A stretch of 64,000 nucleotides of DNA from Burkholderia sp. TSV86 (GTDB lineage Bacteria; Pseudomonadota; Gammaproteobacteria; Burkholderiales; Burkholderiaceae): contig NZ_LOWB01000104.1 of the NCBI RefSeq assembly GCF_001522865.1, forward strand, positions 1 through 64,000, given 5' to 3'. How positions within the stretch are numbered: the stretch's first letter is position 1; the number at the start of each line of letters is the position of its first letter. Below the pieces are notes generated by a model, which did no database searches, was not told where the DNA came from, and saw only the letters and a list, made by a program, of their open reading frames with translations. This document shows, one piece after another, positions 1 to 64,000 of the stretch. A program made the translations under genes and the position numbers.

Positions 1-99
1 TCGCCGCCGCTCGTCATCTCCAAGCCCGAAATCGACGAACTGGTCGAGAAGGCGAAGCGCGCGATCGATGCGACGGCAAGGCAGATGGGCATGGCGTGA
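1..99 (+). CDS. C-terminal tail of an aminotransferase-like protein (partial)
   Basis: The window opens inside a gene: frame 1 stays open for 32 codons and stops with TGA at 97-99. The tail reads PPLVISKPEIDELVEKA and then AIDATARQ. The pattern (a PPL.I motif followed by an amphipathic helix with IDE and EKA) is typical of the end of class III PLP-dependent aminotransferases, where this helix packs against the small domain. The catalytic lysine and cofactor site lie outside the window, so substrate and family member cannot be told. Codon use matches the GC-rich core, so this marks the left edge of core chromosome before the AT-rich patch. Confidence 0.55.
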   Translation, partial: SPPLVISKPEIDELVEKAKRAIDATARQMGMA

Positions 100-465
100 A
101 CTTGCCGGATTCGCGCTCGTTTGCCGGTGCGCGATGCATAGACGGGCCGCGGATGTTCGACCGGTATCCCGAGACGATCAGATTCAGGCCGAACATCCGG
201 AATAGGCGTATTGCCGATTCGATTGCTCGGGCGGCGCGACGCCGGTTTCGCGGGATTTAGATTAAATGGGTATTGATTCATAATTAACGTGAATGATGGG
301 ATTGAATTAATTTTTTATTTTTAAATAAAATTTCCGGTATGGGGAATTTCATGTTTTTATAGATGATCATCATCTAATTAAAATGTGATGCTGGAAAATT
401 GGTGGAGCGTTGCCTACTATATATCGGGAGCAGTATTGAGCGATCCATGATGACGGCGGCGTGGC
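100..465. other. AT-rich intergenic stretch
   Basis: No gene is recognised here. From about 255 to 400 the composition drops sharply to AT-rich, with runs of T and A around 306-330, in strong contrast to the surrounding GC-rich DNA. This could be a promoter region for the small gene at 466 or a scar of horizontal transfer near tRNA-Val. No promoter hexamers are convincing enough to call. Confidence 0.5.
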
Positions 466-825
466 ATGAAAAATTCAAACGAACGCAGATTTTCAATTGT
501 ATTCGCCTTTATCGTTTTTCTGGCGCCCGTGGCGAGTCTTGCGGGAGGCAAGCGCTGCCTGTCGTCCAATGCGCTCATCGAATTCAGGTGTGGTCGCGCG
601 ATCAATGGATTGGATGTTGTGGTTATTACCGGGCGCCGTGGCAACGCCATGTGCAATGTTGCGCTTGCCGTCGCGAACGCTACCCTTGGAATGGGTAACG
701 GGGCGGTGATCGTCAAAGGCAACAAATGGATATGCGCTGACGCTCAGCCAAAGGGATGGCCGGTTCCGTACAGACAGTGCATTAACTGGAATGCGCCTAG
801 TGAAATTGTGAGGATATATTCGTAA
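466..825 (+). CDS. Small secreted cysteine-containing protein, unknown function
   Basis: A 119-residue protein with a clear Sec-type signal peptide: basic start (KNSNERR), hydrophobic core SIVFAFIVFLAPVASLA, likely cleaved near residue 26. The mature part of about 93 residues has five cysteines (31, 42, 63, 90, 105), which fits a disulfide-stabilised periplasmic or secreted protein, with a hydrophobic stretch VVVIT near 51-55. I do not recognise the family. It lies directly after the AT-rich patch and its base composition is lower in GC than the core genes, which suggests recent acquisition. The ribosome site is weak (GGCGGCGTGGC before ATG), so the start and even expression are uncertain. 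A signal peptide in this frame only favours it over overlapping frames. Confidence 0.5.
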   Translation: MKNSNERRFSIVFAFIVFLAPVASLAGGKRCLSSNALIEFRCGRAINGLDVVVITGRRGNAMCNVALAVANATLGMGNGAVIVKGNKWICADAQPKGWPVPYRQCINWNAPSEIVRIYS

Positions 826-1323
826 CGTAGGCAATAAGCGAGACACTTGCATCCGGCATGCTTGCATTGGTGTGCCCGAATGGAATCGTTCCTGGGGGGG
901 CTTGAGTATTCAAATCGGGCGACGACGCTTAGCTTGGCTTCGATATGAACAGCATGCATGCGGGCGCGACACCGTTCGCGCGAATTTGAACCGGCGAGGC
1001 TGGGTTGGCAGTAAAAGCGGCTCGATGATTTTCCATTGTCTATCGTCGATGGCCGGTTCGCATATTTTTTCTGATTGTTTTACCAAACGTTCGCGTCATG
1101 GCCAGCTATAACGGGAACATTGCTGATTATGGAGAATTGGCCCGGCACTCGGACATCGGGCTTTGCTGCCGGAGTTTGGTTGGGTGCGGCATGTTTGCGC
1201 TCTCATAGAGCCCTTTGCGCTAATTCGATCTCCTATCCGGCGCGCTACCCATCTAATAGCGATGCCGCCCGTCATCGGCGGCCATGTGATATCGATCAAC
1301 CTGAAGACAGATAAAAGGTGTTC
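826..1323. other. Gap without a recognisable gene
   Basis: About 500 bases of intermediate GC between the two orphan genes. Short open frames exist on both strands but none has a recognisable domain, a good ribosome site or convincing codon bias. It may hold the promoter of the gene at 1324 or gene remnants. Confidence 0.45.
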
Positions 1324-1701
1324 ATGAATTCAATCGGTTCATCCAGCTTTTCCAATGACTATCAGATCCAATCGGATTGCAGCCTGTCTCCCGGCACTGC
1401 CGCGTCGTACAGTCAGGCGGCGCCGGGAACGGCATCGGATTTGACGGGGGCGTTGAAAGACTTAGTGGATAAGGCTCATTCAGACGCGCGGAGGGAGATT
1501 TATTTCGGCTTGCGCGAAAAGGCGGCTGACATGGTGCCGATCCTGCAAATCGAGACGCAGCGGGGAAGGTCGGGCCGAAGCGTTGCAATGGAGCGGGGTT
1601 TTTCAGCCGGTCTTGCGTCCGAATACATGAAGAGAGGCATGGCCTCGGTAAAGGGCCAGCGTTCCATCCAAAAGCATTACCAAAACTATTGGCAGCCGTG
1701 A
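1324..1701 (+). CDS. Orphan hypothetical protein, 125 aa
   Basis: No family recognised. The ATG at 1324 is preferred because AAAGGTG lies just upstream; a GTG at 1318 would add two residues. The N-terminal 40 residues are Ser/Gly/Ala-rich and unstructured-looking (SIGSSSFSND, SLSPGTAASYSQAAPGTAS). The rest is a charged, helical part (LKDLVDKAHSDARREIYFG) with a basic C-terminus. A flexible Ser-rich start is seen in many secreted effectors, but I see no decisive secretion motif and make no such claim. A stem-loop at 1801-1830 may end its transcript. Composition is lower in GC than core genes and there is no functional neighbour, so it belongs to the accessory islet beside tRNA-Val. Confidence 0.45.
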   Translation: MNSIGSSSFSNDYQIQSDCSLSPGTAASYSQAAPGTASDLTGALKDLVDKAHSDARREIYFGLREKAADMVPILQIETQRGRSGRSVAMERGFSAGLASEYMKRGMASVKGQRSIQKHYQNYWQP

Positions 1702-1800
1702 ACGCGGCGTGGCCGATGCGAATGTGATGCGCGGTGCGGACGTGGCACCACCGCAGATTAAAACTCAGGTTTGAGATTCGGCTGCATTCGGTTTGTTGAC

Positions 1801-1830
1801 GAACTCCACATCTCTGGAAATGTGGAGTTC
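1801..1830 (+). terminator. Perfect 10-bp stem-loop, possible terminator
   Basis: GAACTCCACA, a 10-nt loop, then TGTGGAGTTC, followed by CGTTTTG. It lies 100 bases after the orphan gene at 1324. The stem is perfect but the U-tract is short, so it could also be an operator or a scar. Confidence 0.45.
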
Positions 1831-1913
1831 CGTTTTGCAGGCGGCGGAGAGTAGATGCCGGCACCGATAGGGCGGACCATGATCGATCTCTTTTCGGGCA
1901 GCCCGATGGAAAG

Positions 1914-1942
1914 AAAAAAGCCCCGCGTGTGCGGGGCTTTTC
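1914..1942 (-). terminator. Bidirectional rho-independent terminator after tRNA-Val
   Basis: AAAAAAG then CCCCGC, a short GTGT loop, GCGGGG and CTTTTC. With A-rich and T-rich flanks it can work on both strands. On the minus strand it follows tRNA-Val, which ends at 1988. Confidence 0.8.
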
Positions 1943-1987
1943 AATTCAGCTTGCGATGCGCGCTACAGCTGCGCTTCAGGAATTCTT

Positions 1988-2062
1988 TGGTGGGCGGTAC
2001 TGGGATCGAACCAGTGACCCCTGCCGTGTGAAGGCAGTGCTCTACCGCTGAGCTAACCGCCC
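1988..2062 (-). tRNA. tRNA-Val (anticodon CAC)
   Basis: Read on the minus strand, the cloverleaf begins GGGCGGTTAGCTCAGCGGTA and ends with the T-arm GGTTCGATCCC, the acceptor strand and an encoded CCA (1988-1990). The anticodon stem CTGCC/GGCAG encloses the loop TTCACAC, so the anticodon is CAC, reading GUG valine codons. It is 75 nt including CCA. tRNA genes are common island insertion points, and an AT-rich islet with orphan genes lies directly downstream of it. Confidence 0.95.
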
Positions 2063-2297
2063 AAAGAGCCTTGAATTATGTCAGAGCTTTTGATGCTCGT
2101 AAAGCATTTTCTGCAAAAATTTTATGAGTTTGCGCGGTGGCGGTTCTCACAGGCCATTTCGTGGCCCAGCGCGATGATCGATCGGACTGCGATAGCGCCG
2201 CGCGGTGTCGTGCGTCGGCGGGACGGGCGCCGGCCAGCATTACGATCGCGCCGACGCGGTGTGCGTGCAAGCCGCGCACGCTTCGGTCCGACAAGAC

Positions 2298-2335
2298 AAA
2301 ACGGCGCGACCGACCATGCGCGGCGCCGCTTTTTT
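2298..2335 (-). terminator. Bidirectional terminator after yggX
   Basis: AAAACGGCGC and GCGCCGCTTTTTT form a hairpin with a U-tract on either strand. It lies 39 bases downstream of the yggX stop on the minus strand and is the likely end of the argA-yggX transcript. The rest of 2063-2373 shows nothing else. Confidence 0.6.
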
Positions 2336-2373
2336 GCGCACCTGCCGCGCACCCGGCGGGCAGGCGCGCGGTG

Positions 2374-2649
2374 TCAATCTTGCGTCGGCGGCACATACCC
2401 CGACGCCTGATCCGCACCTTCGCCGAAGAAATACTTCTCGGTCTGCTTCATCAGATATTGGCGCGCACGCGGATCAGCCATGTTCAGGCGGTTTTCGTTG
2501 ATGAGCATGGTCTGTTGCTTGAGCCAGCCTTGCCATGCCTCCTTCGACACGCTTTCGTAAAGACGCTTGCCGAGTTCGCCGGGCAGCGGTGGAAAATCGA
2601 GCCCCTCGGCTTCCTTGCCAAGCTTCGCGCAATGAATCATACGGGCCAT
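2374..2649 (-). CDS. yggX: Probable Fe(2+)-trafficking / oxidative damage protection protein
   Basis: A 91-residue cytosolic protein of the YggX family, which helps protect labile iron-sulfur clusters and handle intracellular iron. It has the family N-terminus [20 protein letters not shown] with the conserved cysteine at position 6, and the C-terminal FFGEG segment. The start at 2649 is chosen over an ATG nine bases upstream because AGGAG lies at good spacing for it and directly abuts the earlier ATG. It lies 46 bases downstream of argA on the same strand, so the two are probably co-transcribed. A terminator follows at about 2300. Confidence 0.93.
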
Positions 2650-2695
2650 CGTGTACATCTCCTGTCAATCGATATCGGGGGGAAGGGCATGCCGC

Positions 2696-4072
2696 TCAAA
2701 GCTGCTTCATCAGTACGAGCGATTTGCGTTGCCAGTTATAGAGTTTGCGGCGATCCTCGGGGAGATCGTCGACGGTTGCCTTGACGAAGCCGCGCTTGAG
2801 AAACCAGTGCTCGGTGCGCGTCGTCAGCACGAAGATGCGCGTCAAACCGCGCGCGCGGGCGCGCTGCTCGATGCGCTTCAGGAGCCGCTCGCCGTCGCCC
2901 GAGCCTTGCGCTTCCGGCGCGACGGTCAGGCACGCCATCTCGCCGATTTTCTCGCTCGGATACGGATAGAGCGCCGCGCAGCCGAACAGCACGCCGTCGT
3001 GCTCGATCACCGAGAAATGATCGATATCGCGCTCGATCTGGTGGCGGCCGCGCCGCACCAGCGTGCCGTCTGCCTCGAGCGGCTCGATCAGCGCGAGGAT
3101 GCCGCCGACGTCGTCTGGTGTCGCCTCGCGCAGGCTTTCGAGATTCTCGTAGGAGATCATCGTGCCGACGCCGTCGTGCAGGAACAGCTCGAGCAGCACG
3201 CTGCCGTCGAGCGACTGCGGAATCAGGTGCGCACGCGCGACGCCGCCTCGGCATGCGCGGATCGCGTGCTTCAGGTAGAACGCGTCGTCGCCTTGCAGGT
3301 CGCCCGAATCGAGCAGCTCGGCGGCGGCGTCGAGCGACATTTCGCGCACGAGCTCGCCCGCGTCATCGACGATGCCGGGCGAATCGGTCAGGAAGATGAT
3401 TTTGTCGGCGCGCAGCGCGATCGCGGCGGCCGATGCGACATCCTCCATCGACAAGTTGAATGCTTCGCCCGTCGGCGAGAAACCGAGCGGCGACAGCAGC
3501 ACGAGCTTGCGGCTCGCGAGCGAGTGGCGAATCGATTCGGCGTCGATTTTGCGCACGACACCGGTATGCGCGAAATCGACGCCGTCGAGCACGCCCACCG
3601 GCCGCGCGGTGACGAAGTTGCCCGACACGACGCTGATGTGCGCGTGCGCCATTGGCGTGTTCGGCAAACCCTGGCTGATCGCCGCTTCAATATCGAGCCG
3701 CACTTCGCCTGCGGCTTCCTTCGCCGATTCGAGCGCGCGCGCGTCGGTGATCCGCAGCCCGTGCGAGAAAGACGATTCGACGCCGTGCAGGCTGAGCTGC
3801 TCCTCGACTTGCGGACGCGACCCATGCACGAGCACGATTTGAATGCCCATCGCCTGCAGTAGCGCGATGTCGGATACGAGCGCGCTCAGCAATCCGCGAT
3901 GCACGACCTCGCCGCCGAAGCCGACGACAAACGTACTGTTCCGGAACTTATGGATGTACGGCGCGACCGAGCGCATCCAGTCGACGAACTGCGCGTGATG
4001 CGCGGCTTCGTCGGCGGAATATGGGGGCGCGGCGTCCGGCTGGGCGGCGGGAAGGTCGGATTGGGAATTCAT
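2696..4072 (-). CDS. argA: N-acetylglutamate synthase (amino-acid N-acetyltransferase)
   Basis: A 458-residue enzyme making N-acetylglutamate from acetyl-CoA and glutamate, the first step of arginine synthesis. It has the classical two-domain layout. The amino-acid-kinase fold spans residues about 35-300 (FVVGFGGEVV, IVLVHGSRPQVEEQL, and the FLTDSPGIVDD segment); in this family it is the arginine-sensing part. A GNAT acetyltransferase domain spans about 310-450 (EKIGEMACLTVAPEAQGSG). Length agrees with classical ArgA. It is divergent from hrpA with only 23 bp between the start codons, and that gap holds a near-palindromic ATTATAAT. The -10 on its strand ends only 7 bases before the ATG, so the mRNA may have almost no leader. 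Confidence 0.95.
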   Translation of the reverse strand: MNSQSDLPAAQPDAAPPYSADEAAHHAQFVDWMRSVAPYIHKFRNSTFVVGFGGEVVHRGLLSALVSDIALLQAMGIQIVLVHGSRPQVEEQLSLHGVESSFSHGLRITDARALESAKEAAGEVRLDIEAAISQGLPNTPMAHAHISVVSGNFVTARPVGVLDGVDFAHTGVVRKIDAESIRHSLASRKLVLLSPLGFSPTGEAFNLSMEDVASAAAIALRADKIIFLTDSPGIVDDAGELVREMSLDAAAELLDSGDLQGDDAFYLKHAIRACRGGVARAHLIPQSLDGSVLLELFLHDGVGTMISYENLESLREATPDDVGGILALIEPLEADGTLVRRGRHQIERDIDHFSVIEHDGVLFGCAALYPYPSEKIGEMACLTVAPEAQGSGDGERLLKRIEQRARARGLTRIFVLTTRTEHWFLKRGFVKATVDDLPEDRRKLYNWQRKSLVLMKQL

Positions 4073-36261: not shown

Positions 36262-38016
36262 ATGAGTCTCATCGAAGTCAAGGTGCCGGACATCGGCGAT
36301 TTCAGCGGCGTCGACGTCATCGAAGTGAATATCAAGCCCGGCGACGCGATCGAAAAAGAGCAGACGCTCATCACGCTCGAGTCCGATAAGGCGTCGATGG
36401 AAGTGCCGAGCGATGTGGCCGGCACAGTCAAGGAAATCAAGGTCAAGGCGGGCGATAAAGTGTCGCAGGGCACGGTGATCGCGCTCGTGGAGGCGGCCGA
36501 GGCCGCGAAGGCGCCCGAAGCGGCGAAGCCCGCGGCCGCCGCGCAGCCCGCGCCGGCCGCGCGCCCGGCCTTGGCGCCCGAAGCGGGCAGCTACGGCGGC
36601 GCCGCCGATATCGAGTGCGACATGCTTGTGCTCGGCGCGGGCCCCGGCGGCTATTCGGCCGCTTTCCGCGCGGCCGATCTCGGCATGAAGACGGTGCTCG
36701 TCGAGCGTTATTCGACGCTGGGCGGCGTGTGCTTGAACGTCGGCTGCATTCCGTCGAAGGCGCTGTTGCATACGGCGCTCGTCGTCGAGGAGGCCGCTGC
36801 GCTTGCCGATCACGGCATTGCGTTCGGCAAGCCGCAAGTCGATCTCGACAAGCTGCGCGGTTTCAAGGCGGGGGTCGTCAAGAAGTTGACGACGGGGCTG
36901 GCCGGCATGGCGAAGGCGCGCAAGGTCGAGGTGGTGACGGGCGTGGGCGCGTTCGTCGATCCGCATCATCTCGAAGTGCAGACGCAAGGCGGCAAGAAGG
37001 TGGTCCGCTTCAAGCAGGCGATCATCGCGGCGGGCTCGCAGGCGGTGAAGCTGCCGTTCATGCCGGACGATCCGCGCGTCGTCGATTCGACGGGGGCGCT
37101 CGAACTGCGCCAGTTGCCCAAGCGGATGCTCGTGATCGGCGGCGGGATCATCGGTCTCGAGATGGCGACCGTCTACTCGACGCTCGGCGCGCAAATCGAC
37201 GTCGTCGAAATGATGGACGGGCTGATGATGGGCGCGGACCGCGATCTCGTCAAAGTCTGGGAAAAATACAACGCGAAGCGTTTCGGCAACGTGATGCTGA
37301 AGACCAAGACGGTCGGCGCGCAAGCCAAGGAGGACGGCATCTACGTGCAATTCGAGGGCGAGAAGGCGCCGGCGGACGCGCAGCGTTACGACCTCGTGCT
37401 CGTCGCGGTCGGCCGCAGTCCGAACGGCAAGAATGTCGGCGCGCAGAATGCGGGCGTGGCTGTTACCGAGCGCGGCTTCATCGAGGTCGACAAGCAGATG
37501 CGCACGAACGTCCCGCATATTTTCGCGATCGGCGACATCGTCGGTCAGCCGATGCTCGCGCACAAGGCAGTGCACGAAGGCCATGTCGCAGCGCAAGCCG
37601 CGCACGGCGAGAAAGCGTATTTCGACGCGCTGCAGATTCCGTCCGTCGCGTATACCGATCCGGAAGTTGCATGGGCCGGCAAGACCGAGGATCAGTGCAA
37701 GGCCGAAGGGATCAAGTACGGCAAGGCAGTGTTCCCATGGGCCGCCTCGGGCCGGGCAATCGCGAACGGCCGCGACGAGGGCTTCACGAAGCTGATCTTC
37801 GACGAGCAAACCCATCGGGTGATCGGCGGCGGGATCGTCGGCCTGAATGCGGGTGATTTGATCAGCGAAGTGTGCCTCGCGGTAGAGATGGGCGCGGACG
37901 CGGAGGATATCGGCAAGACGATCCATCCGCATCCGACGCTCGGTGAATCGATCGGAATGGCCGCCGAGCTGTATGAAGGCGTTTGCACCGACCTGCCGCC
38001 GCAGCGCAAAAAGTAA
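36262..38016 (+). CDS. lpdA: Dihydrolipoyl dehydrogenase with N-terminal lipoyl domain, E3
   Basis: A 584-residue flavoprotein that reoxidises dihydrolipoamide with NAD. An extra N-terminal lipoyl domain (Lys43 in ESDKASME) and an Ala/Pro linker precede the usual E3 fold; this fusion is known in beta-proteobacterial and neisserial enzymes. The FAD-binding motif is VLGAGPGGYSAAFRA, the redox disulfide is Cys157/Cys162 in GGVCLNVGCIPSK, and the NAD motif is VIGGGIIGLEMATVY. The C-terminal HPHPTLGE carries the catalytic His-Glu pair. It is the last gene of the pdh operon, with a terminator 35 bases downstream. Confidence 0.97.
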   Translation: MSLIEVKVPDIGDFSGVDVIEVNIKPGDAIEKEQTLITLESDKASMEVPSDVAGTVKEIKVKAGDKVSQGTVIALVEAAEAAKAPEAAKPAAAAQPAPAARPALAPEAGSYGGAADIECDMLVLGAGPGGYSAAFRAADLGMKTVLVERYSTLGGVCLNVGCIPSKALLHTALVVEEAAALADHGIAFGKPQVDLDKLRGFKAGVVKKLTTGLAGMAKARKVEVVTGVGAFVDPHHLEVQTQGGKKVVRFKQAIIAAGSQAVKLPFMPDDPRVVDSTGALELRQLPKRMLVIGGGIIGLEMATVYSTLGAQIDVVEMMDGLMMGADRDLVKVWEKYNAKRFGNVMLKTKTVGAQAKEDGIYVQFEGEKAPADAQRYDLVLVAVGRSPNGKNVGAQNAGVAVTERGFIEVDKQMRTNVPHIFAIGDIVGQPMLAHKAVHEGHVAAQAAHGEKAYFDALQIPSVAYTDPEVAWAGKTEDQCKAEGIKYGKAVFPWAASGRAIANGRDEGFTKLIFDEQTHRVIGGGIVGLNAGDLISEVCLAVEMGADAEDIGKTIHPHPTLGESIGMAAELYEGVCTDLPPQRKK

Positions 38017-59866: not shown

Positions 59867-62413
59867 ATGCGGGCGATGGTCGGCGCGTTCGCGCTCGGCG
59901 TCGTCGCGCTGCAACAGCAGGCGGCGTTGCCGGGCGCGGCGGCATGGGCGGGCGGCGTGCTCGCATTCGGGGTGTGCGTGTGGCTCGCGGCCGTTGCGTA
60001 TCGCGGCTGCCGCGACGGGCCGCCGCGCCGGCGCCGGGCTGGCTTGTGCGCGTGCTGTTGCGCGGCGGCGCTTGCCGGCTTCGGCTATGCGGCGGCACGC
60101 GCGCAATGGCGCTTGAGCGATACGCTGCCCGAGCGGTGGGAAGGGCGCGATATCGTCGTGACGGGAGCGGTGCGCGGCTTGCCGTCACGCGATGCGAAGG
60201 GAGTGCGTTTTCTGTTCGATGTCGACGCAAACGATGCGGGCATCGCGCGCTTTCCTGCGACGCTGTCGCTCGGATGGTATGCGCTTGGCCGCGACGCGGC
60301 CGCGTCGCCCCGGCTCGTGCCGGGCGATCGATGGCGGTTGCGCGTGCGTTTGAAACGGCCCCACGGCAACGCGAACTTTGGTGTGCGCGACGCCGAGGCG
60401 AGCTGGCTCGCGCGCGGCATTCGCGCGCTGGGGTACGTGTCGGCGCCGCGCGATGCGCGGCGGCTCGCAAGCGGGGCGTCCGGCGCCGGCTATGCAATCG
60501 ATCGGGTCCGTGCGCGCTTGCGTGAGCGCATCGATAGCGCGCTCGGCGCCGCGCCGCATCGCGGTATCGTCGCGGCGCTCGCGATTGGCGCGCAGGACGG
60601 CATCGGCGACGACGACTGGCGCACACTGCGCGAGACCGGCACGAGTCATTTGGTCGCCATTTCCGGGCTGCATGTCGGGATGGTGGGCAGTTTGTGCGGA
60701 TGGCTCGCAGGCTGGTTCTGGCGGCGCTCGGGCTATGTCGGGCGTGCGTGGCCGCTTGTCGCGCCGGCGCAGAAAGTTGCCGCGCTCGGCGCGCTTGTCG
60801 GCAGCGCCGGTTATGCGGCGCTGGCGGGCTTCAACGTGCCGGCGCAGCGCGCGTGGTGGATGCTCGCCGCGGCGAGCGTCGCGTATCTGAGCGGGCGGTC
60901 GTTGCCGGCATCGTCGGTGCTCGCGGCGGCGCTCGTCTGCGTGCTGTTCGTCGATCCGTGGGCCGTGACATCGCCGGGATTTGGGTTGTCGTTCGGCGCA
61001 GTCGCGGCGATTTTGTTCGCGTCGGCTGGCCGCAGGGCAGCAGCGCGCGATGCGGCAGATGCCGCTCGGCCAAGTTCGGCTGACGCGGCAGGCGCTGGCC
61101 CAACCGCTGACGGCGTGTCGCCGTCGCATCAGGTCCGGGTGCGAGGCGCGATCGTGCGCATCGCGCGGCGTGCGATGCGGCGCCTGCGAGAGGCGTCACG
61201 CACGCAATATGCGGTGACGATCGCGCTCGCGCCGCTCACTGTTTTATGGTTCGCGCAGATTCCGCTTGCCGGGCCGCTTGCCAATGCGTTCGCGATTCCA
61301 TGGATTGCCTCGCTCGTCACGCCGCTCGTGCTCACCGGCGTCGTGCTGCCCGCGCCGCTCGACGCCACGGTGTTGACTGTCGCCCATGCGCTCGTCGGTG
61401 CGCTGATGCGGTTGCTCGAAGCGATCGCCGGGGCTGGGCGCACGGTCTGGTTCTTGCCGCTGCCGGGCGGCTTCGCGCTTGCGGCAGCGGTCTGCGGTAT
61501 CGTTTGGGCGCTCGCGCCGCGCGGCTGGCCGCTGCGGCATGCCGCGCCGCTTACGTGGCTGCCGCTCGTCGCGCCGGGGCCGCACGCGCCCGCCGATGGC
61601 GCATTCCGGTTGACGGCGCTGGATGTCGGGCAGGGGTCCGCGATCGTGATCGAAACCGCGCGGCATACACTGCTGTTCGACGCCGGGCCAGGGCCGGAGG
61701 CGTCGAACGCGGGTGAGCGGGTCGTCGTGCCGTTTTTGCGCGCGCACGGTGTGCGCGTGCTCGACGCGCTCGTAATCAGCCACGCGGATGCCGATCACGC
61801 GGGCGGCGCGCCCGCGATACTTTCGGCGTTGGCGGTTCGGCAACTCGTGGGCGGTCTGCCGCCGTCGAATCCGCTATGGCGCACCGCGCACGACGCCGGT
61901 GTGGCTGATGCGCTGCCTTGCGCGGCCGGGCAGCGCTGGCGCTGGGACGGCGTCGATTTCACGATGCTTTGGCCTGCCGTCGGCCCGCGCGCGCGCGGGC
62001 CGACGAACGCGCAGTCATGCGTGCTGCGTATCACGGCGCGCGGGCCGATGGTTGCGCCGATGGCGCGCGGCGCAACCGAGCAGCCGCCCGAGCGTTCCGC
62101 GCTGCTGACGGGCGACATCGACGCACGCTCCGAGCGCACGCTCGTCGCGGGCTCGCGCGCGGCGCTCGCCGCGCATGTGCTCGTCGTTGCGCATCACGGC
62201 AGCCGCACATCATCGACCGAACCTTTCCTCGACTCGGTCGAGCCGCGCGTCGCGGTATTTCAGGTAGGCTATCTGAAACACCGTGCCTACCTCGGGCCGG
62301 GAAAACCTTACGCAGCAAAGCTTTCCGGGGGTGTGTCAGTGCTGTCACGTGCTGCCTGTGACCAAATCGTGACCGCTTCTGCGTGCGCCGCAAGATGGTC
62401 AGGCGCGAGATGA
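59867..62413 (+). CDS. comEC: ComEC/Rec2 DNA-uptake channel, 3' end replaced by an integrated element
   Basis: A DNA-internalisation protein of the inner membrane. The first 800 or so residues look normal: several N-terminal membrane segments, the competence domain (RETGTSHLVAISGLHVGM), and a metallo-beta-lactamase-like domain with VGQGSAIVIET, SHADADHAGG and VVAHHGSRTSST. Homologous-looking sequence runs to about residue 802 (VFQVGY). After that the frame continues for about 45 residues (LKHRAYLGPGKPYAAKLSGG onward) unlike the usual ComEC end, then stops at 62413. This tail overlaps the integrase gene on the opposite strand, so it is element DNA. The junction is near 62270-62278. Function may be lost or altered. 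SD GGAGG precedes the ATG. Confidence 0.85.
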   Translation: MRAMVGAFALGVVALQQQAALPGAAAWAGGVLAFGVCVWLAAVAYRGCRDGPPRRRRAGLCACCCAAALAGFGYAAARAQWRLSDTLPERWEGRDIVVTGAVRGLPSRDAKGVRFLFDVDANDAGIARFPATLSLGWYALGRDAAASPRLVPGDRWRLRVRLKRPHGNANFGVRDAEASWLARGIRALGYVSAPRDARRLASGASGAGYAIDRVRARLRERIDSALGAAPHRGIVAALAIGAQDGIGDDDWRTLRETGTSHLVAISGLHVGMVGSLCGWLAGWFWRRSGYVGRAWPLVAPAQKVAALGALVGSAGYAALAGFNVPAQRAWWMLAAASVAYLSGRSLPASSVLAAALVCVLFVDPWAVTSPGFGLSFGAVAAILFASAGRRAAARDAADAARPSSADAAGAGPTADGVSPSHQVRVRGAIVRIARRAMRRLREASRTQYAVTIALAPLTVLWFAQIPLAGPLANAFAIPWIASLVTPLVLTGVVLPAPLDATVLTVAHALVGALMRLLEAIAGAGRTVWFLPLPGGFALAAAVCGIVWALAPRGWPLRHAAPLTWLPLVAPGPHAPADGAFRLTALDVGQGSAIVIETARHTLLFDAGPGPEASNAGERVVVPFLRAHGVRVLDALVISHADADHAGGAPAILSALAVRQLVGGLPPSNPLWRTAHDAGVADALPCAAGQRWRWDGVDFTMLWPAVGPRARGPTNAQSCVLRITARGPMVAPMARGATEQPPERSALLTGDIDARSERTLVAGSRAALAAHVLVVAHHGSRTSSTEPFLDSVEPRVAVFQVGYLKHRAYLGPGKPYAAKLSGGVSVLSRAACDQIVTASACAARWSGAR

Positions 62414-63378
62414 GCGTATCGCAAAACCATCTCGTATTTCGACCAACCGCCGAGTTCCATCAACCGATTGAGTGGCGTACCCGCTTGCACGTGCCAACTC
62501 GCCCAGGTGTGCCGCAAGTCATGGAATCGAAAGTTTTCGATCCCGGCCCGCGCACATGCGCGCCTCCACTGCATCCGGTCCCAGCGCTCAATCGGTTTGC
62601 CGCGGCGCGTGAACACGCGCGTTGGATGCTTGCCGAGTTGACGCCGGATGACTGTAACCGCCTCGTCGTTCAACGGCACACCGATCGGTTTTCGCGCCTT
62701 TGCTTGATCGGGGTGAATCCATGCGCGGCGATTCACCAAATCAATTTGCGACCATTCCAGCCCGAGCACGTTGGCTTGACGCAGGCCAGTAGCGAGCGCA
62801 AGCGTTGCGACGTCACGCAACCATTCCGATCGAATTGCTTCGAGCAAGCGGTGGGCTTCGCCGCGCGTGATCCAACGTATGCGCTTAGGCGGCATTGCAA
62901 GTTCCGACAGTTTCGGGGCCTTATCGAGCCACCCCCATTCGTTCGCTGCGGCATTGAGCAACGCACGCATCGTGCCGAGATACCGATTCTTCGTCGTGGC
63001 CGTTAGCGGTCGGATGGCTTTTGTGCAGCCGTTGTGTTGCGGGAGCGCAGCAAAAATCTCATCGCGCGTGATCGAGTCTAGCCGTCGGCCAGCGAAGAAT
63101 TGCCGGAAGTGTCGGATATGTATCCGCTTGTTCACGTTGTCGTGCGCGCACGTGCGTCCTGCACTTTCTTCAAGGAACCGGAGCGCCGCTTCATCGAACA
63201 TGCGCGCAGGGCGTTCGCCAAGCTTCACGACGCGCCACGCCTCATGCTTCAACTTGTCGTGGAACTCTTGCGCCTCCTTTCGATTGGTTGTGCCAGTAGT
63301 TTGTCTAATGCGACCGCCGCCCGGCGTGCGGATGTCAACGTGCCAGATGTCACTGCCTTTGCGCTTTCGGATGGGCAT
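62308..63378 (-). CDS. int: Tyrosine site-specific integrase
   Basis: A 356-residue tyrosine recombinase. The N-terminal arm-type and SAM-like domains span about 1-165. The catalytic domain has the first Arg in TGLRQANVLGLEW, HDLRHTWASWH with the His-X-X-Arg, and the nucleophilic Tyr in MVLRYAHLAPDH. It is a complete enzyme by these residues. The start at 63378 has GGAGAG well placed. Its 3' end lies about 30 bases from the comEC junction, as expected of an integrase next to its attachment site. Its 5' end overlaps the excisionase-like gene by 130 bases. Confidence 0.95.
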   Translation of the reverse strand: MPIRKRKGSDIWHVDIRTPGGGRIRQTTGTTNRKEAQEFHDKLKHEAWRVVKLGERPARMFDEAALRFLEESAGRTCAHDNVNKRIHIRHFRQFFAGRRLDSITRDEIFAALPQHNGCTKAIRPLTATTKNRYLGTMRALLNAAANEWGWLDKAPKLSELAMPPKRIRWITRGEAHRLLEAIRSEWLRDVATLALATGLRQANVLGLEWSQIDLVNRRAWIHPDQAKARKPIGVPLNDEAVTVIRRQLGKHPTRVFTRRGKPIERWDRMQWRRACARAGIENFRFHDLRHTWASWHVQAGTPLNRLMELGGWSKYEMVLRYAHLAPDHLAAHAEAVTIWSQAARDSTDTPPESFAA

Positions 63379-63590
63379 TGAAAACTCTCCTTTCCTTCCG
63401 TCCGCGCCGGTCGATCGGCATTGTAACTGGACGTTTGTGCTTTCAGATTTTCGGGCCACACGCGCCACGCTGCGCCTACGCGGAAGAAGCCAAGGGCTTC
63501 CTTGTTTGCGTAGAGGGTCGAATACGAGACTTTGAGTAGCGCGGCCGCTTCCTTCAGGGTCAGTGCGCGGGTTTCCGTGTCGATAGTCAT
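63249..63590 (-). CDS. Excisionase-like helix-turn-helix protein
   Basis: A 113-residue protein whose first 50 residues form a MerR/Xis-type winged helix (TLKEAAALLKVSYSTLYANK, then FFRVGAAWRVWPENL). Such proteins bind att DNA and steer integrase toward excision or regulate it. The rest is polar and unstructured and overlaps the start of the integrase gene in another frame by 130 bases; this part could be dispensable. The start at 63590 has GGGGGA upstream, and the upstream helicase stop overlaps it (ATGA), so the three genes form one transcript. The name excisionase is by fold and location only. Confidence 0.75.
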   Translation of the reverse strand: MTIDTETRALTLKEAAALLKVSYSTLYANKEALGFFRVGAAWRVWPENLKAQTSSYNADRPARTEGKESFQCPSESAKAVTSGTLTSARRAAVALDKLLAQPIERRRKSSTTS

Positions 63591-64000
63591 CGATTCCCCC
63601 TTCGTTTCATTGAGTCGAGCAAGATGTCTTGCACTTGGCGTTTGGTTTCCCGGCGCAGCACGACGTCTTCGTCGATCGTGTCGCGCGCGAGAATGTGGTA
63701 AATGAAGACCGGCCGGCGGCGTCCGGCCTGCAATTGACGGACGGGACCGATCCGCTCGACGATCTGCTGATATTCTTCGAGATTCCACCAGTGCCCAAAG
63801 ACAGCGAGAATGTTTCCGCCGTCCTGCAAGTTCAGGCCGTGCCCGGCGCTGGCCGGGTGCGCGAACATCACGGGAATCTTGCCGAGATTCCAGTCACGAA
63901 TCGTCTGTGGGTTCTGGTCGAGCGGCCGGCCGCGCGGGAATGCGCGCTGCAGCCGCGCAAGGTCCGACTTGAAGTGATAGGCGACGAGTACCGGCATGCC
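63587..64000 (-). CDS. Phage-type SNF2/DEAD helicase, C-terminal part (partial)
   Basis: The frame runs off the window to the right, so only about the last 137 residues are seen. They form the second RecA-like helicase domain: VLVAYHFKSDLARLQRAF, motif V region ASAGHGLNLQDGG, and motif VI EEYQQIVERIGPVRQ. In the last, the Arg finger region reads GPVRQ rather than the usual GR.GQ. The C-terminal tail is DEDVVLRRETKRQVQDILL. This resembles the SNF2-like helicases in the replication modules of temperate phages, which supports a prophage. Its stop overlaps the excisionase-like start. Confidence 0.8.
   Translation of the reverse strand, partial: GMPVLVAYHFKSDLARLQRAFPRGRPLDQNPQTIRDWNLGKIPVMFAHPASAGHGLNLQDGGNILAVFGHWWNLEEYQQIVERIGPVRQLQAGRRRPVFIYHILARDTIDEDVVLRRETKRQVQDILLDSMKRRGNR

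What the first reader, a model, noticed from the sequence alone, without database searches (positions are those of the whole stretch)
62255..62413. Competence gene comEC is interrupted by an integrative element and given a chimeric C-terminus
ComEC-like sequence ends near residue 802 (VFQVGY, about 62272). The same frame then runs 45 residues through DNA that is antisense to an integrase gene ending 30 bases away. This replaces the end of the metallo-beta-lactamase domain of the DNA-uptake channel. If excision is regulated, competence could be switched by the element, as known for the Listeria prophage in comK. The in-frame tail may instead keep the protein partly functional.
Basis: partly seen in the sequence, partly recalled or inferred. 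Interest (0 to 1): 0.8.

Follow-up and report, generated by a model that had tools for sequence, protein, structure and literature searches.

The report
Prophage inserted in DNA-uptake gene comEC
A dormant virus of about 43,000 bases sits inside a Burkholderia gene for the DNA-uptake channel and cuts off the channel's last part; related viruses chose the same spot in other genera, and at that spot the gene's DNA spelling, not just its protein, is unusually conserved.

Summary
comEC runs to Tyr802 (FQVGY, 62272). A prophage begins at the att core GGTAGGCTATC (62263-62273), which recurs at contig position 105154 beside the missing comEC 3' piece: 42,891 bp core to core. A close relative has the intact gene. 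Integrase, excisionase-like, S24-repressor, packaging, head and lysis genes suggest an inducible phage; activity is not shown.

Integration is site-specific and recurrent: three more lysogens (Trinickia soli, Paraburkholderia solisilvae, one IMG/VR record) have related integrases at the same codons and the comEC 3' piece elsewhere; four IMG/VR contigs show attP-like junctions. The 46-residue chimeric tail looks fortuitous: the other three frames stop after 0-5 residues. ComEC keeps its metal ligands but loses 58 residues; reduced transformation is inferred. Regulated switching is untested.

Prophages in comEC are in print already (phi1207.3; a Variovorax prophage): a new member of a known kind. 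Unexpected: of 794 codon columns, only the three at the core have an A/T third base conserved in 29 relatives, a DNA- or RNA-level constraint of unknown function.

The parts
59867..62272 (+). comEC, codons 1-802, up to FQVGY
   Evidence: Pfam/NCBIfam; 95.8% identity to intact L006 over 802 residues
62256..62272 (+). motif TATTTCAGGTAGGCTAT, conserved at DNA level in comEC of relatives
62263..62273 (+). attL core GGTAGGCTATC, repeated at C104:105154-105164 (attR, outside the window)
62253..62283 (.). near-perfect inverted repeat around the attL core (15-nt arms, 87% complementary): presumed core-type integrase sites
   Evidence: L002:2253-2283
62273..62413 (+). fortuitous 46-codon tail and stop, phage DNA
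   Evidence: not kept in three related junctions
62356..62371 (+). 16-bp direct repeat CTGTGACCAAATCGTG, second copy at C104:105007-105022: presumed arm-type integrase site
62308..63378 (-). tyrosine integrase, 356 aa
   Evidence: Pfam PF00589, PHROG integrase 1.7e-66
63249..63590 (-). excisionase-like protein (start inferred)
   Evidence: PHROG 2907 excisionase, E 1.6e-12; Pfam HTH_17 below its cut-off
63587..64000 (-). phage DNA helicase, runs on beyond the window; the prophage continues to C104:105153
   Evidence: PHROG 62 DNA helicase, E 1.7e-139, on L002:3590-5047

Best explanation
A complete-looking temperate phage of 42.9 kb, related in part to Burkholderia phage BcepC6B, has integrated by site-specific tyrosine recombination at a short core (7 bp identical in every junction read, 11 bp here) inside comEC. 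SHOWN by sequence: both half-sites, the split gene with no host bases missing relative to L006, an intact relative, the same site in three other lysogens with related integrases, and attP-like junctions in four virus contigs. INFERRED: ComEC loses the last 58 residues of its nuclease-type domain, so natural transformation is lost or strongly reduced in the lysogen, which would also protect the prophage from removal by transformation; induction through the S24-type repressor and precise excision would re-form the gene.
For: Direct repeat and 3' piece; intact relative L006; single comEC; integrase, excisionase-like, S24 repressor, packaging, head and lysis genes; same site in G025 (Trinickia soli), G345 (Paraburkholderia solisilvae) and L109, with the comEC 3' piece found apart from the 5' part in each; TAGGCTA identical in 4 attL, 4 attR and 4 attP-like junctions; lost part is conserved and part of the solved fold; dprA and comM have open, family-level matches elsewhere in the genome.
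Against: No transformation, expression or excision data. All metal-ligand positions of the nuclease domain are kept, and some ComEC proteins work without this domain, so partial function is possible. Competence of this species is unknown. Related integrases without the core near them exist (24 of 57 rows), so the integrase family as a whole does not predict the site. In G345 the two comEC parts lie on different contigs.
Confidence: 0.85

Rival explanations
1. The site was chosen for its DNA, not for its gene: the integrase exploits the most constrained DNA stretch of comEC, as others exploit tRNA genes, and loss of competence is a by-product rather than a strategy. This competes with the anti-competence reading, not with the insertion itself.
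For: Only codons 796, 797 and 799 of 794 columns have a conserved A/T third base in 29 genes, and they are the core; TAGGCTA is kept even where Val became Leu (TTA) in G130.
Against: Prophages recurrently hit competence genes in other bacteria (PMC4774983, passages), which points to the gene.
Confidence: 0.45
2. Active lysogeny: excision is regulated, so the phage switches competence on and off as in Listeria comK.
For: Excisionase-like gene and S24 repressor present; the core is identical at both ends; for phi1207.3 in pneumococcal comEC, mitomycin C restored a low level of competence (PMC10383233, discussion passage).
Against: The phage carries lysis and packaging genes and no sign of control by competence was looked for or seen; SOS excision would normally end in lysis.
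Confidence: 0.1
3. The 46-residue in-frame tail keeps a partly functional ComEC.
For: The frame is open to 62413.
Against: Tails in the three other junctions are 0, 5 and 5 residues; most of this one is antisense to the integrase, which alone explains its similarity in relatives.
Confidence: 0.03
4. Assembly artefact.
For: Draft genome of 135 contigs.
Against: One 244-kb contig holds both junctions; a separate IMG/VR record holds this integrase and terminase at 100%, though it may come from the same isolate; the same architecture recurs in other genera.
Confidence: 0.02

Closest known systems
Streptococcal phage phi1207.3 in pneumococcal comEC/celB (PMC10383233, discussion passage seen)
   Same: Temperate phage inserted in comEC; transformation impaired; induction frees the site and restores some competence.
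   Different: Unrelated host and a different element; here the host is a Gram-negative, the insertion leaves 802 of 860 or so codons, and function is untested.
Prophage VAI-C_pp_2 in ComEC/Rec2 of Variovorax paradoxus (PMC9658991, table passage seen)
   Same: Tyrosine-integrase prophage of 42 kb in comEC of a member of the same order.
   Different: Different att sequence (GCTGCCGTGGTGCGGC in the table); its integrase was not compared here.
Prophages and islands in comK, comYC, comFA, comM (PMC4774983) and comGA (PMC7029219), passages seen
   Same: Mobile element split of a competence gene at a recurrent site by related integrases across genera.
   Different: Target gene is the channel itself, which PMC12955456 (passages) calls rarely hit.
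Listeria phi10403S in comK (cited in PMC12955456; details recalled)
   Same: Phage in a competence gene with both halves flanking it.
   Different: Regulated excision without lysis is not shown here.
Burkholderia phage BcepC6B / Bordetella BPP-1 type phages
   Same: DNA match over 31% of the first 17.7 kb at 81.5%; lysis genes next to the integrase end as in BcepC6B.
   Different: BcepC6B was not among the 40 rows shown in the integrase search (257 rows unseen), and the virion half was not compared by DNA.

Membership tests
Prophage integrated by a tyrosine integrase | Integrase gene next to one att site | tested here: met
   62308-63378, 34 bp from the core
Prophage integrated by a tyrosine integrase | Direct repeat of the core at both ends, host gene split without loss | tested here: met
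Prophage integrated by a tyrosine integrase | Packaging, head, tail and lysis genes | tested here: met
Prophage integrated by a tyrosine integrase | Excision, circular attP and virions | not testable with these tools
   attP-like junctions seen only in related IMG/VR contigs
Competence-disrupting mobile element | Gene needed for transformation is split | tested here: met
Competence-disrupting mobile element | Same site used by related integrases in other hosts | tested here: met
   three further lysogens
Competence-disrupting mobile element | Transformation reduced | not testable with these tools
   inferred from the lost fold elements and published domain mutants (PMC8579336, PMC12455585, passages)
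Active lysogeny (Listeria comK type) | Regulated excision that restores the gene without lysis | not testable with these tools
   no data on excision
BcepC6B/BPP-1-like phages | Shared replication and virion modules in one order | tested here: inconclusive
   replication half matches BcepC6B in part; head-tail adaptor and major head families hit; virion half not compared by DNA

The most novel reading that the evidence does not exclude
The att core lies on a DNA- or RNA-level functional element hidden in the comEC coding sequence of Burkholderia and allied genera (TTTCNNNTAGGCTAY, usually preceded by TA). It might be an internal promoter or processing site for the downstream hydrolase gene (next to comEC in 29 of 29) or a programmed slow-translation site. 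Integrases carried by phages with different terminases parasitise this constraint, so lysogeny cuts both the channel and the element.
Probability: 0.6. Interest if true: 0.65.

Novelty: new member of a known kind. Interest (0 to 1): 0.5.

Why it matters
It adds the DNA channel gene itself, in Burkholderia, Trinickia and Paraburkholderia, to the competence genes that prophages use as recurrent attachment sites. It supports the idea of conflict between prophages and transformation, and sharpens a rival that can be tested: that the site is used because its DNA is constrained. The constrained motif inside comEC is, as far as my searches went, not described. Strains lysogenic at this site may be poorly transformable, which matters when strains are chosen for genetics.

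Tried and rejected
Functional chimeric tail: rejected, since three other junctions close the frame at once. A second comEC as backup: none found. A sigma-70 promoter at the conserved motif or at attR: no match; other promoter types are not covered by that scan. An Rfam RNA over comEC and flanks: no match up to E 0.5 in L006 and L009. The motif elsewhere in the window, up to 3 mismatches: only the att site and a 3-mismatch match that is the other arm of the same palindrome.

Integrase tree: the label 'core TAGCCTA near the integrase stop' is clustered but not one clade. 8 of 57 rows have it, 24 lack it, 25 are unknown because the record ends at the integrase; the tree needs 3 changes. The 24-row clade that holds all 8 also holds 7 without it. 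So comEC targeting cannot be read from the integrase alone. L037 (70% identity) sits next to other genes, some 208 kb from the comEC match in that genome. Rows dropped before the tree: seven loci that repeat others, and L042 for an in-frame stop (65 rows, 57).

Exceptions to the motif: four genomes that lack the longer pattern were read. In G143, G162 and G017 codon 796 no longer ends in TA, but TTTCNNGTAGGCTAY is kept; in G130 Val799 is Leu, written TTA, so TTTCAGTTAGGCTAT. Other genomes of the family without a hit were not read; most genera of the family have none (hits in 6 of 25 genera in each call). The comEC codon set is the 29 best-scoring genomes other than the window's own (139 of 150 genomes had a match), so close relatives are over-represented, and the resampling ignores relatedness. 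Two of 29 outgroup loci were unreadable at the site.

Papers that led nowhere for this question (passages only): PMC9341999 and PMC3948429 (comEC without an insertion), PMC12860723 (no integration sites in the passages found), PMC9927172 (the word comEC does not occur in its held text).

Full report
WHAT IS THERE. The window is C104:1-64000 of a 5.82-Mb draft genome. Its genus is Burkholderia: contig G193:C26, of the same genus, has the length (183,990) of NZ_ML058622.1, Burkholderia sp. Nafp2/4-1b, and both hold the same integrase match. ORF 59867-62413 is ComEC up to codon 802. Beyond the window the 3' end of comEC lies at C104:105152-105340, and the flank matches the intact relative L006 at 95.1% over 1537 bp. 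The core GGTAGGCTATC is present at 62263 and 105154, 42,891 bp apart (one search printed 105153 and 42,890 because of an offset slip in my script). The two flank alignments overlap by 14 positions on L006, so no host sequence is missing. The element has 59-60% G+C, the flanks 65-68%.

THE ELEMENT. Ten proteins were sent to PHROGs and all ten matched: integrase, excisionase, helicase, DNA polymerase, terminase large subunit, head-tail adaptor, major head protein, tail protein, endolysin, holin. Of ten sent to Pfam (nine of the phage, one the host hydrolase), an S24-peptidase repressor and a YdaS-type protein stand next to each other; an 898-residue protein has an SLT domain; three had no match. 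The first 17.7 kb match BcepC6B over 31% at 81.5%, and Bordetella BPP-1-type phages over 3-4%. The rest was not compared by DNA. It looks like a complete temperate phage; activity was not shown.

SITE-SPECIFIC AND RECURRENT. In 398 family genomes the integrase matched 63 at E 1e-30 or better; of the 30 loci returned, 3 have comEC beside the integrase: the window, G025 and G345. Of 42 genome-contig loci the same two have comEC; of 80 IMG/VR loci (the best 80 of 384), one, L109. In all three the comEC alignment breaks at the same codons. A search for the comEC 3' piece in 19 genomes and records matched four: the intact G134, and, apart from the 5' part, G025 (same contig; cores at 37,921 and 79,598), G345 (another contig) and the L109 record. 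Fifteen records had none; the window phage's own IMG/VR record is one of these, being cut at the integrase. The 7-bp TAGGCTA is identical in 4 attL, 4 attR and 4 attP-like junctions; the latter (L108, L113, L122, L143) have no comEC on either side of the core. The window's attL is a 15-nt inverted repeat and a 16-bp direct repeat lies near both ends of the phage; I take them for core-type and arm-type integrase sites, by analogy recalled from other tyrosine integrases. This phage's terminase has relatives in G025 and G528 but not in G345 or in the other comEC-core records tested (4 of 12 genomes and records matched, two being this phage itself). So the integration module occurs in phages with different terminases. 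Records may be fragments.

THE UNEXPECTED PART. In 29 comEC genes (L006-L034) codon 799 is GTA in 29 of 29, though GTA is 6% of valine codons; 797 is TTT in 29 of 29; 796 ends in TA in 29 of 29, whether it codes Val, Ile or Leu. Of 794 codon columns only 796, 797 and 799 have an A or T third base conserved in at least 97%; mean GC3 is 0.82; resampled synonymous codons gave the motif in at most 2 of 29 genes in 2000 trials; at same-residue sites two genes share a median of 55% of codons. TATTTCNNGTAGGCTAY occurs in 118 of 299 family genomes and TTTCNNGTAGGCTAYCG in 107 of 299; in each case every listed genome has one copy, and the reversed pattern occurs in 2 of 299. Of 41 genomes of the window's genus 38 have the first and 39 the second; each of the 41 has at least one. 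In the 55 genomes that I took from both lists, 55 hits lie in comEC. Genomes without it were partly read: three keep TTTCNNGTAGGCTAY but not the preceding TA, and one has TTAGGCTAT with Val changed to Leu. So the strictest part is TAGGCTAY, the att core. In a class-wide sample 0 of 27 readable genes have GTA there. The hydrolase gene follows comEC on the same strand in 29 of 29. No sigma-70 match, no Rfam family. What the motif does is open.

KNOWN OR NEW. Eight searches of the paper library and passages of twelve papers (I read no paper whole) show prophages in comEC in print: phi1207.3 in pneumococcal comEC/celB (PMC10383233) and a Variovorax prophage in a table of PMC9658991. PMC4774983 describes the general kind (comK, comYC, comFA, comM); PMC12955456 says comEC is rarely hit and reports transposable elements in it; PMC12637031 cites transposons in pneumococcal comEC. 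I found no report of this site, these lysogens or the codon motif in those searches; the library lacks most subscription papers. Natural transformation is reported for some Burkholderia strains (PMC5734746, abstract and passages).

VERDICT. Observation confirmed; chimeric-tail function rejected; switch untested; loss of competence likely but inferred. A new member of a known kind with one surprising side result.

Noticed in passing
window 62256-62272; same codons in L006-L034: comEC carries a DNA-level conserved motif (TATTTCNNGTAGGCTAY) exactly at the att core; function unknown.
   Followed up: partly
L004:5152 (C104:105152): At attR the phage end supplies an in-frame GTG for the 62-codon comEC 3' piece; no clear ribosome site was seen by eye, so it is probably chance.
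   Followed up: no
L117, L119, L123-L125, L144 downstream of the integrase: Related integrases (65-68%) without the comEC core nearby; their attachment site was not worked out.
   Followed up: no
window 1-3000: Low G+C (0.53-0.58) beside a tRNA-Val gene at 1988-2062; possibly the edge of another island.
   Followed up: no
L003:16079-18775 (C104:96079-98775): 898-residue phage protein with an SLT transglycosylase domain and a sub-cut-off match to the nuclease-type domain PBECR1.
   Followed up: no
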